Assembly: GCA_030706385.1 (NCBI GenBank)
Contig: JAUZOQ010000030.1
Location: 1 to 34,273, forward strand
From: Bacteroidota bacterium
GTDB taxonomy: Bacteria > Bacteroidota > Ignavibacteria > Palsa-1295
Direction: 5' to 3'
DNA: 34,273 nt
Shown: one piece after another, positions 27,907 through 34,273 of the stretch
Layout of the letters: each line of letters begins with the position of its first letter
Position numbering within the stretch: the first letter of the stretch is position 1
The notes under the pieces: model-generated
What the model was told of the DNA's origin: nothing
The model's input: only the letters and a program-made list of their open reading frames with translations
The model's database searches: none
Translations under genes and position numbers: made by a program

Positions 27907-29559
27907 CTATATTGATGCCAGGTATTCGTGTAAGCTTCTTTCTGAGTTGAGCAGAAGTTTCTTACGAATCCGGTAACGATGATTCTCAATGTTTCTATCC
28001 GTAACGTAGAGAAGTTTCGCTATGTCGGTTGTCGTAAGACCGAGACGAAGCATGGTGCAGACTTTGTTTTCTGTTCCGGTCAGTGTAGGAAATTTCTCCT
28101 TAAGCCTTGATTGAAAGAACGGATGTACTGCTTGAAATTGCTCTTCAAATTCCTCCCACTTAGTCTTTACTTCAGTTGCCGACTTTAAGCGTTCTTTGAT
28201 ATCGCGAATCAGAGGATCGTTTGCAGGAGAACGCCGTATAATAGCCCGAAGATCGTCACGAAATTGTGTCAGTGATTCCGTCTGCATGATCAGATGCCGT
28301 GTTTTTTCCGTCAGCTCCCGCTCCTTATATTCCAATTCAATCCGCAACTCATCGGAGCGCTGTCGCTCCTGAGTTATTTCCATTTTCTTCATTTCGCATT
28401 CCTCCTGCAATTCGATAAATTGGATTCGGGTTTCCAGTAACTGCTCTCTTTGCTTTACAAAGTGTTCATTATAGAGTTCAAGATACTTCAGCGCATTGGG
28501 TGCATCATTGGCAAGTTTCGAAGTTTCATACATCATGCGGTATGTGTGCTCCTCAAGATAATCATACCTACCCCGACGGAGAAGCTTTAGCGCTTGCTTC
28601 GCAGCGGTGACAGCCCGCTCAACATCGCCTCGCTCGATATACATTTCGCACGCAATTCCCCAGGCATTGAGCAGGAGAGGAGCGCCTTGCGAAGATTCAA
28701 ATACACCTATAGCACTGGTGATCGCTTCCTCGGCCTCGGAATATCGCATCTGGTGCATAAACAGCTTGCCTTTGCAGAGAGCGAGCGAACCCTTCTCGTC
28801 TTCATGCAAAAGGTTCTCATGTTCGGAAATATTCCGAATGTATTCCTCTGCCTCTTTATTTTTCTTGGCTTCTACGAGGATCGTAACTAACCTGATCTGA
28901 GCCTTGAGAATACTGGCCAGTCGATTTGACTTTTTCTGAACAGTGAGGTACTGATGCGCATATTTTTCAGCCTGAGTGAGTTTTTGTCTTGTCAGGAAAA
29001 GCTCAGAAAGCTTGAACAGAATTTTTCCTTCGATACTGTGGTATCCGTTTTGTTGCGCCTGGGTTAAGGAATGATGAAAATATCTTAACGCATCGTCATC
29101 GGAAGAATACCTCTGCGAGACGGAGCCGAGGACATAGTTGCAATAACATACATTGTATGAAGCATTAACCTTTTCTGCTCTTGCCGTCGTCTCAAGGGCA
29201 AGCGAATATGCCTCTTTCAGTTTTTGATCCCAGAGATGAAGATTGGCTTCGGCAGACATACAATCTAATTCGAGGTCCAAGAGTCCCAACTTTCGTGCAA
29301 TTTCGGCTGCCTTCGAATTTAACTCTTGTGCCTTTGGGATTTCGCGCCTGAATTCATGGGCACGTGATTGATAATAGAGACTCCTTGCCATGCCTTCCGA
29401 CCATTGGACTTTTTGCGATGCATCATGAATGTGGCCTATCTCGACTTCCATAGCATCGAGCCATCCCGATTTGCGGAATTCCTTCTTGATCTGCTCTAGT
29501 TGCGTTCGAAGTGTTTTCTTGCTTTCCATTATGTAGTAATCCGCGGGTTGATCAGGCAT
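27907..29559 (-). CDS. TPR-containing LuxR-type HTH transcriptional regulator
   Basis: The protein has 550 residues. The N-terminal two-thirds (about residues 60-370) is a chain of TPR-like helix pairs (ALRYFHHSLTQAQQNGYHS, LTQAEKYAHQYLTVQKKSN, VERAVTAAKQALKLLRRG). A charged coiled coil follows at about 370-435 (QLLETRIQFIELQEECEMKK). A segment starting W468EEFEEQF leads to a LuxR/GerE-type HTH at about 489-550: FPTLTGTENKVCTMLRLGLTTTDIAKLL and DRNIENHRYRIRKKL. No membrane segment or receiver domain is present, so it is probably a soluble sensor-regulator using TPRs to sense a partner. The start at 29559 has GGGAG upstream, but inside a hairpin. Its promoter carries a 23-bp palindromic element. 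Confidence 0.9.
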   Translation of the reverse strand: MPDQPADYYIMESKKTLRTQLEQIKKEFRKSGWLDAMEVEIGHIHDASQKVQWSEGMARSLYYQSRAHEFRREIPKAQELNSKAAEIARKLGLLDLELDCMSAEANLHLWDQKLKEAYSLALETTARAEKVNASYNVCYCNYVLGSVSQRYSSDDDALRYFHHSLTQAQQNGYHSIEGKILFKLSELFLTRQKLTQAEKYAHQYLTVQKKSNRLASILKAQIRLVTILVEAKKNKEAEEYIRNISEHENLLHEDEKGSLALCKGKLFMHQMRYSEAEEAITSAIGVFESSQGAPLLLNAWGIACEMYIERGDVERAVTAAKQALKLLRRGRYDYLEEHTYRMMYETSKLANDAPNALKYLELYNEHFVKQREQLLETRIQFIELQEECEMKKMEITQERQRSDELRIELEYKERELTEKTRHLIMQTESLTQFRDDLRAIIRRSPANDPLIRDIKERLKSATEVKTKWEEFEEQFQAVHPFFQSRLKEKFPTLTGTENKVCTMLRLGLTTTDIAKLLYVTDRNIENHRYRIRKKLLLNSERSLHEYLASI

Positions 29560-29605: not shown

Positions 29606-29656
29606 CAAATTTACGGGATTCTATAGGTGATCCAGTACTCTAAGAGTACTCTATTT
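29606..29656 (-). promoter_or_regulatory. Promoter module A (drives the TPR-LuxR gene)
   Basis: On the minus strand a 23-bp element (29656 to 29634) ends in the 17-bp palindrome AGTACTCT-T-AGAGTACT, followed by a 20-nt spacer and the -7 box TAAATTTG (29613-29606). No TTG -33 box is present; the palindrome occupies that place, centred about 41 nt before the estimated start near 29601, a class II activator position. Confidence 0.75.
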
Positions 29657-29664
29657 TTCCTTTG

Positions 29665-29715
29665 AAATAGAGTACTCTTAGAGTAATGGATTTAGGTTGC
29701 TGAGCCGTAATTTTG
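29665..29715 (+). promoter_or_regulatory. Promoter module B (drives the structured intergenic RNA)
   Basis: This is the same 23-bp element as module A (29665-29687, one mismatch in the last half-site: AGAGTAAT for AGAGTACT). It is followed by exactly 20 nt and the -7 box TAATTTTG (29708-29715). The spacer starts GGAT and ends CCG, as in module A. Predicted start is near 29720. Confidence 0.7.
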
Positions 29716-29718
29716 TGC

Positions 29719-29943
29719 ATGATTACTTTGCATTACACAACAACTGCACTGTCCGCCACGCATTAGTTGCCCTCATAGATACCCTGCCACGGAAAAAGAG
29801 GCAACACCTCCCAGGCACGGCAAATTGCCTGGGAGTACTGTTTTACCCCTCAAAAATCAGGCAATTCCGGCTCAAAACCGGAATTGTCTGGTCAGTCTTA
29901 GAAATGCTTCTGACTAAGATTGTGCAAATCTTACAAGGTAAGA
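29719..29943 (+). ncRNA. Candidate structured leader RNA or small RNA with alternative hairpins
   Basis: Downstream of promoter B no protein gene is recognisable, but the strand is packed with inverted repeats. P1-P2 is a perfect 10-bp stem CTCCCAGGCA / TGCCTGGGAG (29808-29817, 29826-29835), followed by TACTGTTTTA. P3-P4 is a 14-bp stem with two G-U pairs (29857-29870, 29878-29891). P2 can instead pair with P3 (AATTGCCTG 29823-29831 with CAGGCAATT 29858-29866). Further overlapping stems lie at 29893-29922, 29915-29933 and 29929-29943. A 15-codon Thr-rich ORF starts at 29719 (MITLHYTTTALSATH). This is the layout of an attenuator or switchable RNA. Boundaries are estimates. Confidence 0.5.
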
Positions 29944-29951
29944 ATATCTTA

Positions 29952-30002
29952 AAATAGAGTACTCTTAGAGTACTCCAATCGCAATTTATCGTAGTATCTT
30001 TG
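29952..30002 (+). promoter_or_regulatory. Promoter module C (drives the short HTH gene)
   Basis: This is a perfect copy of the 23-bp element (29952-29974, palindrome centre 29966), then exactly 20 nt and the -7 box TATCTTTG (29995-30002). The estimated start near 30007 puts the palindrome centre at about -41. It lies 29 nt before the ATG of the HTH gene at 30032. Confidence 0.75.
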
Positions 30003-30031: not shown

Positions 30032-30448
30032 ATGCAAGATCCCCATGCATTTGATAAGTCTGCCTCTCGTGCCCAGAAACGAGACAGATTTTTGAGACAC
30101 AAAAACCGAAGCGCCCCTGGTCCCACCTCAGGAGCCTCATTACAGAATCATACAGCTGAGCAGGAAGTGGTGCGCCGTTCGCGCGCAAAGCGCCACCGGA
30201 CGTGGGATCAGATCGATCGCGAATCCGGAGGTATTTATGCTCTCTATCTCCGCGATCTCGCTCGGCGATTTCCAACACTTTCGCCTATGGAGCTTCGCAT
30301 CAGTGCTCTGATCAAAGGAATGCTTAGGAGCTGGGAAATAAGCGAGCGCCTTGCCATCGAAGAAAAGACTGTAGAAAACCATCGTACCAACATTCGACGA
30401 AAACTCGGACTTGAAGTAAGTCAGAATCTACAGAAGCACCTACTCTAA
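30032..30448 (+). CDS. Short LuxR-type HTH DNA-binding protein
   Basis: The protein has 138 residues. The N-terminal roughly 57 residues are basic and disordered (many Arg, Lys, Ser). From W58, WDQIDRESGGIYALYLRDLARRFPTLSPMELRISALI runs into a LuxR/GerE HTH with KTVENHRTNIRRKLG. This block aligns with W468 onward of the TPR regulator (FPTL[ST], ENHR, IR[RK]KL). So it looks like a stripped version of the same family without TPRs. No receiver domain is present. Its promoter carries module C. The start has no Shine-Dalgarno. It could be a repressor, activator or antagonist of the TPR regulator; which is not known. Confidence 0.85.
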   Translation: MQDPHAFDKSASRAQKRDRFLRHKNRSAPGPTSGASLQNHTAEQEVVRRSRAKRHRTWDQIDRESGGIYALYLRDLARRFPTLSPMELRISALIKGMLRSWEISERLAIEEKTVENHRTNIRRKLGLEVSQNLQKHLL

Positions 30449-30493: not shown

Positions 30494-30520
30494 ATCCAAT
30501 CCTCACATTGGGTGGTTTTT
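30494..30520 (+). terminator. Weak terminator candidate after the short HTH gene
   Basis: ATCCAAT / ATTGGGT (7 bp with one G-U pair) with a 6-nt loop is followed by GGTTTTT. It sits 45 nt after the stop. Stem is short, so confidence is low. Confidence 0.35.
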
Positions 30521-30547
30521 GGGGGGTGGAAAATATCAGATCTTACT

Positions 30548-30555
30548 TAGTTTTG
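30548..30555 (+). promoter_or_regulatory. Candidate -7 box of the protease cassette
   Basis: TAGTTTTG matches TAnnTTTG, 57 nt before the protease ATG. No -33 TTG is present at 17-19 nt, and no copy of the 23-bp palindromic element is found here. Confidence 0.4.
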
Positions 30556-30612: not shown

Positions 30613-31404
30613 ATGGCCAAGAAAACTGCTGCTAGCCAACCAAAGATCCGTCGGATAAGCCGCTACGGATGGGCACCTGATCTGCCCGACCATCGTGATC
30701 TGATGTATGCTGCACCTATGGCAATCATCCGAAAACTTCCACCGAAAGTCGATCTTCGATCAAAATGTCCGCCAGTCTATGATCAGGGACAGATCGGAAG
30801 CTGCACGGCTCACGCCATTGCCGGAGCCATCCATTTCGATGAGAAAAAAGAAAAGCTTTCGAAGATCATCATGCCTTCTCGTTTATTCATTTATTACAAC
30901 GAGCGTGTTATTGAAGGAAGTACTTCCAGCGATAGTGGCGCACAGATCCGCGATGGAATTAAGACCGTGACAAAGCAAGGCTACTGTTCTGAATCAGATT
31001 GGCCGTACAACGTCACCAAAGTTACTATTAAGCCGCCTAAGCCTGCGTACACTGACGCAGCCTCACATCGAGTGACACAATATCAGCGACTCGTGCAGAA
31101 TTTGCAGCAATTGAAGGGCTGTCTTGCAAGTGGATATCCGTTCGCATTTGGCTTTACCGTCTACGAGAGTTTTGAAAGTCCGGCAGTCGCAAAGACGGGC
31201 ATTGGCACGATGCCGAAGGGAAACGAATCGGTTGTAGGTGGCCACGCTGTTCTGGCTGTCGGTTACGACGATGCCAAGCAAGTCTTCATTATCCGCAACT
31301 CCTGGGGCCCGAAATGGGGCATGAAGGGCTACTTCACTCTGCCATACACTTACCTAATGGAGAGAAATCTCTCAAGCGATTGTTGGACGATCAGGACGGT
31401 ATAG
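30613..31404 (+). CDS. Papain-like cysteine protease (C1A family), cytoplasmic
   Basis: The protein has 263 residues. YGWAPDLPDHRDLMYAAP (18-35) is a common N-terminal block of bacterial C1A proteases. PKVDLRSKCPPVYDQGQIGSC holds the oxyanion Gln58 and the nucleophile C64. GGHAVLAVGYDD holds H211, and IIRNSWGPKWGMKGYF holds N229. The catalytic triad is intact. There is no signal peptide and no inhibitory prodomain, so it appears to act in the cytoplasm unless exported by another route. Next are a lipoprotein (20 bp on) and a small hydrophobic protein (3 bp after that), probably one transcript. The substrate is unknown. Confidence 0.93.
   Translation: MAKKTAASQPKIRRISRYGWAPDLPDHRDLMYAAPMAIIRKLPPKVDLRSKCPPVYDQGQIGSCTAHAIAGAIHFDEKKEKLSKIIMPSRLFIYYNERVIEGSTSSDSGAQIRDGIKTVTKQGYCSESDWPYNVTKVTIKPPKPAYTDAASHRVTQYQRLVQNLQQLKGCLASGYPFAFGFTVYESFESPAVAKTGIGTMPKGNESVVGGHAVLAVGYDDAKQVFIIRNSWGPKWGMKGYFTLPYTYLMERNLSSDCWTIRTV

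Positions 31405-33150: not shown

Positions 33151-34273
<1,123 letters not shown>

What the first reader, a model, noticed from the sequence alone, without database searches (positions are those of the whole stretch)
29606..30002. Three promoters built on the same 23-bp palindromic element at a fixed 20-nt spacing
The element occurs three times (29634-29656 minus; 29665-29687 plus with one mismatch; 29952-29974 plus, perfect). In every case the edge of the element is followed by exactly 20 nt and then a TAnnTTTG box (TAAATTTG, TAATTTTG, TATCTTTG). The element's 17-bp palindrome AGTACTCT-W-AGAGTACT is centred at about -41. No -33 TTG exists in any of the three, so the palindrome probably replaces it as an activator site. 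Two modules feed the divergent LuxR-type genes and the third feeds an apparently non-coding stretch. A shared, likely autoregulatory regulon in one locus is implied.
Basis: partly seen in the sequence, partly recalled or inferred. Interest (0 to 1): 0.85.

Follow-up and report, generated by a model that had tools for sequence, protein, structure and literature searches.

The report
LuxR-type promoters with tandem heptamer operators
A group of uncultured bacteria seems to place, beside genes of one regulator family, promoters marked by a short word repeated exactly one DNA turn apart; the word differs between regulators, which hints at a readable regulator-to-DNA code.

Summary
In detail: three copies lie where stated, and a fourth, on another contig of the same genome, also has exactly 20 nt to TAnnTTTG. 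The reading changes. In relatives the conserved unit is not the palindrome but an 11-bp-period direct repeat, TAGAGTA-N4-TAGAGTA, 22-23 nt before the box; the palindrome exists only because this genome's spacer is CTCT. The same geometry with other heptamers sits beside LuxR/GerE-type genes across this Kapabacteria-like family: 18 of 170 boxes near GerE genes against 1 of 311 in control stretches. Behind sensor-less GerE genes it is found in 17 of 20 (control ORFs 23 of 865). The window holds a fourth such promoter (TTGGGTG/TTGGGGG) behind its small LuxR gene and before a papain-like protease gene. Exact TAGAGTA repeats co-occur with a GerE helix NI[EQ]NHR[YH], carried here by the 550-aa TPR-LuxR (7 of 8 genomes with it, 3 of 189 without). 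Most likely: the TPR-LuxR activates itself, a probably non-coding transcript and the small LuxR gene; the small LuxR then activates the protease gene. Binding, activation and transcription starts are inferred. Closest precedent: the ComA direct repeat. New variant of a known kind.

The parts
29636..29653 (-). Operator 1: TAGAGTA-CTCT-TAGAGTA, before the TPR-LuxR gene
   Evidence: exact match; 22 nt to the box
29606..29613 (-). Box TAAATTTG of promoter 1
29668..29685 (+). Operator 2: TAGAGTA-CTCT-TAGAGTA, before a stretch that is probably non-coding
   Evidence: exact match; 22 nt to the box
29708..29715 (+). Box TAATTTTG of promoter 2
29955..29972 (+). Operator 3: TAGAGTA-CTCT-TAGAGTA, before the small LuxR gene
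   Evidence: exact match; 22 nt to the box
29995..30002 (+). Box TATCTTTG of promoter 3
30508..30525 (+). Operator 4: TTGGGTG-GTTT-TTGGGGG, behind the small LuxR gene and before the protease gene
   Evidence: (100 nt behind the gene, gap 22)
30548..30555 (+). Box TAGTTTTG of promoter 4
27907..29559 (-). TPR / coiled-coil / GerE regulator P0001, 550 aa, helix RNIENHRYRIRKK; proposed reader of TAGAGTA
   Evidence: GerE 28.9 bits (cut-off 23.5), TPR_12 29.6 (just under its cut-off 30.1); AlphaFold2 model; co-occurrence
30032..30448 (+). Small GerE (LuxR-type) regulator P0002, 138 aa, no sensor domain recognised; proposed reader of TTGGGKG
   Evidence: GerE 37 bits; operator behind the gene
30613..31404 (+). 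Papain-like cysteine protease gene, proposed target of P0002
   Evidence: Peptidase_C1 73.1 bits; first ORF of 90 aa or more behind promoter 4
29720..29845 (+). Possible short transcript from promoter 2, ending at a terminator-like hairpin (29808-29835); start and end are guesses
   Evidence: 29720-29960 folds better than all 200 shuffles, z -4.5; terminator-like hairpin; no Rfam match. Caution: an 86-aa frame without ATG start crosses the stretch

Best explanation
These look like class II activator promoters of LuxR/GerE-type regulators. The operator is two copies of a 7-bp word, one DNA turn (11 bp) apart, ending 22-23 nt before the TAnnTTTG box, so that two GerE heads sit on one face of the DNA next to RNA polymerase, about where a -33 element would lie. 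The word differs between regulators. In this locus the TPR/coiled-coil/GerE protein P0001 reads TAGAGTA and activates its own gene (promoter 1), a probably non-coding transcript (promoter 2), the small GerE gene P0002 (promoter 3) and, on another contig, a secreted-type protein gene. P0002, without a sensor domain, reads TTGGGKG and activates the papain-like protease gene directly behind it (promoter 4): a two-step relay. Shown from sequence: positions, geometry, conservation, enrichment beside GerE genes, co-occurrence. Inferred: binding, activation rather than repression, which protein reads which word, transcription starts, and any signal sensed by the TPR superhelix.
For: 4 of 4 own-genome sites keep the spacing, control 0. 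Relatives keep TAGAGTA-N4-TAGAGTA: 12 exact sites in 6 of 13 family genomes, reversed control 1; one copy precedes a small GerE gene in each of the six. Any-word scan: peak at period 11, gap 22; 18 of 170 boxes near GerE genes against 1 of 311 control boxes. Behind 17 of 20 sensor-less GerE genes against 23 of 865 control ORFs. Word distance follows GerE distance over 19 pairs, rho 0.55, 0 of 5000 permutations. The NI[EQ]NHR[YH] helix goes with exact TAGAGTA repeats: 7 of 8 genomes against 3 of 189. G004:C22 has the same order as the window: TAGAGTA, small GerE gene, other word, next gene. A GerE protein, ComA, is reported to bind an 11-bp-period direct repeat next to the -35 region (PMC4797271).
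Against: No binding or transcription data. In the table only 8 of 37 long (TPR-type) GerE genes have a site in reach, two more in longer loci. G128 has four exact TAGAGTA sites but no NI[EQ]NHR[YH] GerE gene found. Three of the 12 exact family sites have no good box. 13 TPR-LuxR loci from other families (one from G128): 0 sites at 22 boxes; G013 loci: 1 site at 71 boxes. Word-helix correlation is not significant within the seven TPR proteins (827 of 5000) and ancestry is not removed. The same geometry is used by winged-helix SARP proteins (PMC5930380). Control stretches come from two genomes only.
Confidence: 0.6

Rival explanations
1. One reading: a LuxR-type homodimer binds the 17-bp palindrome AGTACTCT-W-AGAGTACT as an inverted repeat.
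For: In this genome all four sites have spacer CTCT, so the palindrome is real here: two perfect and two with one mismatch. Inverted repeats are usual for the HTH family (stated in PMC4797271).
Against: The 12 exact repeats of the family have eight different spacers, and those of the relatives are not palindromic. The part of the 23-mer outside the palindrome (AAATAG) fits a tandem, not an inverted, repeat. Other GerE genes have tandem words of period 11.
Confidence: 0.08
2. A winged-helix activator (OmpR/PhoB or SARP type) elsewhere in the genome reads the tandem heptamers, and the GerE genes are only its targets or neighbours.
For: Heptamers with 4-nt spacers are the classical SARP unit (PMC5930380 passages); recalled: the Pho box has the same 11-bp unit.
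Against: Words change from one GerE gene to the next within a genome, correlate with the GerE domain, and exact TAGAGTA follows one GerE helix across 197 genomes. I did not test whether any winged-helix family tracks the words.
Confidence: 0.15
3. The sites are right but the regulator represses: protein bound at the -35 region blocks polymerase (negative autoregulation).
For: Several sites lie before the regulator's own gene, as in negative autoregulation; a missing -33 TTG does not single these promoters out.
Against: The distance to the box is fixed at 22-23 nt, as expected for contact with polymerase; many sites lie before another gene. Neither point is decisive.
Confidence: 0.12
4. The copies are a dispersed or duplicated repeat without regulatory role.
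For: The four own-genome copies are almost identical, including the spacer.
Against: Flanks beyond the unit differ, the distance to the box is fixed, and the design recurs with other words in other genomes; control stretches lack it.
Confidence: 0.03

Closest known systems
ComA direct-repeat (DR) promoters of Bacillus subtilis (PMC4797271: passages; section 14)
   Same: A GerE-type (tetrahelical HTH) activator on a tandem word of period 11 (TTGCGG-N5-TTGCGG), next to the -35 region, proposed type II activation; one G009 site here reads TTGCGGG-TATT-TTGGGGG.
   Different: ComA is a response regulator and its promoters also carry an inverted-repeat site; here no receiver domain was found and only tandem words, different for different regulators.
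MalT / LAL regulators (MalT boxes recalled)
   Same: TPR-like superhelix followed by a C-terminal GerE domain; MalT domain III is among the structural matches of P0001 (rank 46); MalT boxes are recalled to include direct repeats near -35.
   Different: No NTPase domain in P0001; a coiled coil of about 90 residues instead.
Rap proteins (TPR partners of ComA)
   Same: Several Rap structures, including RapF with the ComA DNA-binding domain (3ulq), match the P0001 model.
   Different: Rap and ComA are separate proteins; TPR matches are generic and eukaryotic LGN ranks higher. No peptide partner is identified.
SARP operators, e.g. PimR (PMC5930380: passages)
   Same: Heptameric direct repeats with 4-nt spacers.
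   Different: SARP proteins bind with another (winged-helix) domain; the neighbouring genes here encode GerE proteins.
NCBIfam BT3442 family
   Same: The C-terminal third of P0001 matches it weakly (27.8 bits, residues 365-548).
   Different: Far below the curated cut-off of 940 bits, so not a member by that model.

Membership tests
ComA-like direct-repeat class II promoters | tandem words with an 11-bp period next to the -35 region | tested here: met
   period 11, 22-23 nt before the box
ComA-like direct-repeat class II promoters | reader has a GerE-type HTH | tested here: met
   P0001 and P0002 match GerE above the cut-off; that they are the readers is inferred
   no receiver domain in P0001 or P0002
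ComA-like direct-repeat class II promoters | demonstrated binding and activation | not testable with these tools
   needs EMSA and reporters
MalT / LAL regulators | NTPase domain | tested here: not met
   none found by Pfam
MalT / LAL regulators | helical-repeat domain followed by C-terminal GerE | tested here: met
   P0001 model and Pfam
Acyl-HSL LuxR quorum-sensing regulators | autoinducer-binding domain | tested here: not met
   not found by Pfam in P0001 or P0002
Acyl-HSL LuxR quorum-sensing regulators | operator conserved as an inverted repeat (lux box) | tested here: not met
   conserved as a tandem repeat in relatives
SARP / PhoB-type promoters | 7-bp words with 4-nt spacers | tested here: met
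SARP / PhoB-type promoters | winged-helix reader | not tested
   no winged-helix protein was looked for genome-wide; P0001 and P0002 are GerE proteins
Bacteroidota-type promoters (recalled: -33 TTTG, -7 TAnnTTTG) | TAnnTTTG box | tested here: met
Bacteroidota-type promoters (recalled: -33 TTTG, -7 TAnnTTTG) | -33 TTG element | tested here: inconclusive
   absent in promoters 1-3 by reading, but about as rare at other and control boxes

The most novel reading that the evidence does not exclude
This lineage of Kapabacteria-like bacteria carries an expanded family of regulators that act as one-chain counterparts of the Rap-ComA pair (peptide-sensing TPR superhelix, coiled coil, GerE), plus sensor-less GerE copies. 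Each reads its own heptamer, repeated one helical turn apart, in a promoter placed beside its own gene. The heptamer follows the recognition helix closely enough that a GerE-DNA recognition code could be read from genomes alone, and the TPR proteins switch on the sensor-less ones as relays to proteases and surface proteins.
Probability: 0.3. Interest if true: 0.82.

Novelty: new variant of a known kind. Interest (0 to 1): 0.66.

Why it matters
Regulator-operator pairs are mostly found one at a time at the bench. Here an uncultured lineage seems to print the operator next to the regulator, at a fixed position, with different words for different recognition helices. That yields a set of ready predictions for a GerE (LuxR-family) DNA recognition code, a direct test of class II activation on TAnnTTTG promoters, and a way towards what the TPR proteins sense. 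It also shows how a true observation (a palindrome) can mislead when the conserved unit is a tandem repeat whose core happens to be self-complementary.

Tried and rejected
Palindrome as operator: rejected on comparison with relatives. The palindrome + box with 3 mismatches finds nothing in the other 12 family genomes. Palindromes before TAnnTTTG in the fetched loci: the known sites and a few isolated hits. The idea that this is the usual promoter of these genomes: rejected; control stretches of G000 and G010 gave 1 of 178 and 0 of 133 boxes. G013's near match to the NIENHRY pattern is not a GerE frame. NIENHRY matches outside the family: in G071, G103 and G184 they lie in frames that do not look like GerE; in G063, G168, G169 and G183 no frame of 50 aa or more holds the motif. 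A conserved small protein beside the TPR-LuxR of four relatives: no homologue in the window, so not part of this finding. Rfam: only rRNA in the window. Literature (open-access library only): Kapabacteria + LuxR + promoter, 0 papers; the listings showed nothing on such promoters or regulators in this lineage (only the listed titles and abstract starts were seen, apart from two papers read in passages).

Limits of my own counts. A filter dropped two-letter words such as TTGGGTG, so promoter 4 was missed there; searches use a corrected filter. One search includes loci fetched by the DNA pattern; one search leaves out six loci tied to the pattern (L084, L087, L093, L116, L117, L119). Box counts treat neighbouring boxes as independent (L104 alone gives 3 of the 18). 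Controls come from G000 and G010 only. In one search the limits (up to 2 mismatches between words, up to 1 in the box) were set after I had seen, the sequence behind four of the eight genes that I call the holdout, so the holdout is not blind; stricter limits are given in the report. The registers were partly set by eye. Some sequence counts (such as the eight NIENHRY genomes) rest on an exact DNA pattern and miss variants.

Full report
What was checked. In the whole genome of the window (3.52 Mb, 161 contigs, 96% complete) the palindrome with up to 2 mismatches has four sites and its reversed control two, so the palindrome alone is weak evidence. With N20 and TANNTTTG added there are four sites against none. 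The fourth, on contig C140, precedes a 427-aa protein with a signal-peptide-like start, BNR repeats and a type IX sorting-domain match just under its cut-off (26.7 against 27 bits).

Which organism. 

The conserved unit is a tandem repeat. Among the 13 family genomes the palindrome with box occurs only in the window's genome. But loci of relatives of the 550-aa protein show AAATAGAGTA-N4-TAGAGTA. Exact TAGAGTA-N4-TAGAGTA occurs 12 times in 6 of 13 family genomes (reversed control: 1), with spacers CTCT, CCAA, CCGA, GGTA, GTGA, GTAT, CCTT and TCTT. Of the 12, six have a perfect TAnnTTTG 22 or 23 nt downstream, three have CATTTTTG there, and three have no good box. In each of the six genomes one copy precedes a small GerE gene. 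In a scan of the named genome collection (84,980 species) with TAGAGTA-N4-TAGAGTA-N(20-27)-ANNTTTG, 14 stretches matched. Five have N of 23 or 24 (that is, 22 or 23 before the first T of the box): four in this family and one (L078) in its class. The nine others fall at other spacings in scattered taxa. Records near the window's own genome may be left out of that collection.

A family-wide promoter design. I then asked, without fixing the word, whether TAnnTTTG boxes near GerE genes are preceded by any repeated heptamer. Over 249 boxes the counts peak at period 11 and gap 22 (24 boxes; other periods at gap 22: 0-4). With only loci fetched by protein similarity, 18 of 170 boxes have the design at gaps 21-23, against 1 of 311 boxes in 715 kb of arbitrary stretches of G000 and G010 (Fisher 5e-8). 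With a looser box the counts are 42 in 411 kb against 13 in 715 kb (this set includes pattern-fetched loci). Words include TTGGGGG, TCGTGAG, TGATGGG, TTGTGAG, ATCAGTA, TTGAGTA and ATAGGTA. So the design is not the general promoter of these genomes; it goes with GerE regulators. Outside the family I found little: 13 TPR-LuxR loci of other families (one of them from G128) had 0 sites at 22 boxes, and 20 loci of G013 had 1 site at 71 boxes.

Where the sites lie. For sensor-less GerE proteins of P0002's type the site lies behind the gene on the same strand and leads into the next gene. 22 short proteins reach 100 bits against the alignment A1 (a 540-aa protein at 100.2 bits was left aside). I tested 20; one ends at a contig end and one was not fetched. 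Within 250 nt behind the gene, 17 of 20 have a site with up to 3 mismatches in all, against 23 of 865 control ORFs; with up to 2, 16 of 20 against 5 of 865; with up to 1, 11 of 20 against 1 of 865. Twelve of the 20 were in A1, picked largely because they had a site (11 of 12); of the 8 others 6, 5 and 1 have one at the three limits. This holdout is not blind, because I had seen the sequence behind four of them before setting the limits. Misses: G009:C288b, G010:C10, G009:C245. Of 37 long (TPR-type) GerE genes in the table, 8 have a site in reach; four lie 84-208 nt behind the gene. Two more sites precede lipoprotein genes just upstream of TPR-LuxR genes (L048, L049). Of 10 proteins behind the sites that I scanned, five have a Pfam match: a trypsin-like protease, a protein with YadA-head repeats, a WD40-like lipoprotein, a protein with a type IX sorting domain, and the C140 protein. 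The window's own is papain-like.

The window as a relay. The small LuxR gene P0002 has TAGAGTA before it and TTGGGTG-GTTT-TTGGGGG-N22-TAGTTTTG 100 nt behind it, leading into the papain-like protease gene. G004:C22 has the same order, with TTGTGTA/CTGTGTG behind its small GerE gene, though its TAGAGTA copy lacks a good box. Promoter 2 points into 29720-29950, which folds better than all 200 shuffles and holds a terminator-like hairpin at 29808-29835; an 86-aa frame without ATG start crosses it, so non-coding is likely, not certain. In G004:C194, near the P0001 orthologue, a TAGAGTA promoter also points into a stretch without a near ORF (first a 91-aa TTG frame at +238, then the TPR-LuxR gene at +544).

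Who reads which word. Over 19 regulator-site pairs chosen by adjacency, GerE distance and word distance correlate (rho 0.55, 0 of 5000 permutations; 12 small proteins alone 0.40, 34 of 5000; 7 TPR proteins alone not significant, 827 of 5000). Shared ancestry is not removed. Examples across genera: ITERSVENHRSNIRRK goes with TCGTGAG in G002 and G004. For TAGAGTA the candidate is P0001. A DNA pattern for NI[EQ]NHR[YH] hits 15 of 197 genomes of the class. In a GerE frame it is in G000, G004, G008, G010, G011 and G012, in a degenerate remnant in G002, and in G053 of another family. Seven of these eight genomes have exact TAGAGTA repeats, against 3 of 189 others (Fisher 5e-10, not corrected for ancestry). 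The G002 remnant has TAGAGTA-N5-TAGAGTA upstream. In G053 the repeat lies 300 nt behind that gene, with a poor box. Outside the family the exact repeat is otherwise at background: 8 in 184 genomes against 9 for the reversed control. Against this, G128 has four of those eight, each with a box-like sequence 22-23 nt on, but no such GerE gene was found. In G116 the repeat lies between two other GerE genes; G070 has one copy without context.

The protein. An AlphaFold2 model of P0001 from three sequences (mean pLDDT 84.1, pTM 0.66) shows a TPR superhelix, one long helix (residues 353-443) and the C-terminal HTH. Foldseek ranks eukaryotic LGN first, then Rap proteins (RapF with its peptide at rank 18, RapF with the ComA DNA-binding domain at rank 32) and MalT domain III at rank 46. 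TPR matches are generic, so peptide sensing is only a lead.

Mechanism. Two GerE heads on one face of the DNA, one turn apart and about 22 nt before the box, is the geometry of the ComA direct repeat, which lies next to the -35 region and is proposed to act in type II activation (PMC4797271, passages and section 14). SARP proteins use the same 7+4 geometry with another fold (PMC5930380, passages), so a winged-helix reader is not excluded. Activation, binding and transcription starts are inferred.

Novelty. GerE proteins on direct repeats are known. New, as far as my listed searches of an open-access library show, are the family-wide design with regulator-specific words beside the regulator genes, the sensor-less GerE relays, and the TPR/coiled-coil/GerE readers. 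I call it a new variant of a known kind.

Noticed in passing
L040 6387-6752 (+), L042 6612-7007 (+), L043 1202-1627 (-), L041 8993-9283 (+): A small protein (about 96-141 aa, C-terminal part around W-DP..VIV.TD/DE) is encoded next to and divergently from the P0001 orthologue in G010, G008, G011 and G004; no homologue in the window. Possible partner of the TPR domain.
   Followed up: partly
L104 1022-2939 (+), L092 967-2589 (-): Tandem arrays of small GerE genes with heptamer-repeat promoters between and behind them (G010:C7, G009:C288).
   Followed up: partly
L163 about 1260-1590: In G002 a degenerate remnant of a GerE C-terminus lies behind a lipoprotein-like start, with TAGAGTA-N5-TAGAGTA upstream.
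   Followed up: no
L235, L239, L241, L242 (G128): A genome of another family of the class has four TAGAGTA repeats with box-like sequences before other genes, without the NIENHRY helix.
   Followed up: partly
L238 1501-1518: In G116 an exact TAGAGTA repeat lies between two GerE genes on the opposite strand.
   Followed up: no
window 33151-34273: The 5' part of a bacterial large-subunit rRNA gene runs off the contig end.
   Followed up: no
L050 7700-7849: The end of contig G012:C112 reads as an inverted copy of the TPR-LuxR gene start, probably an assembly artefact.
   Followed up: no
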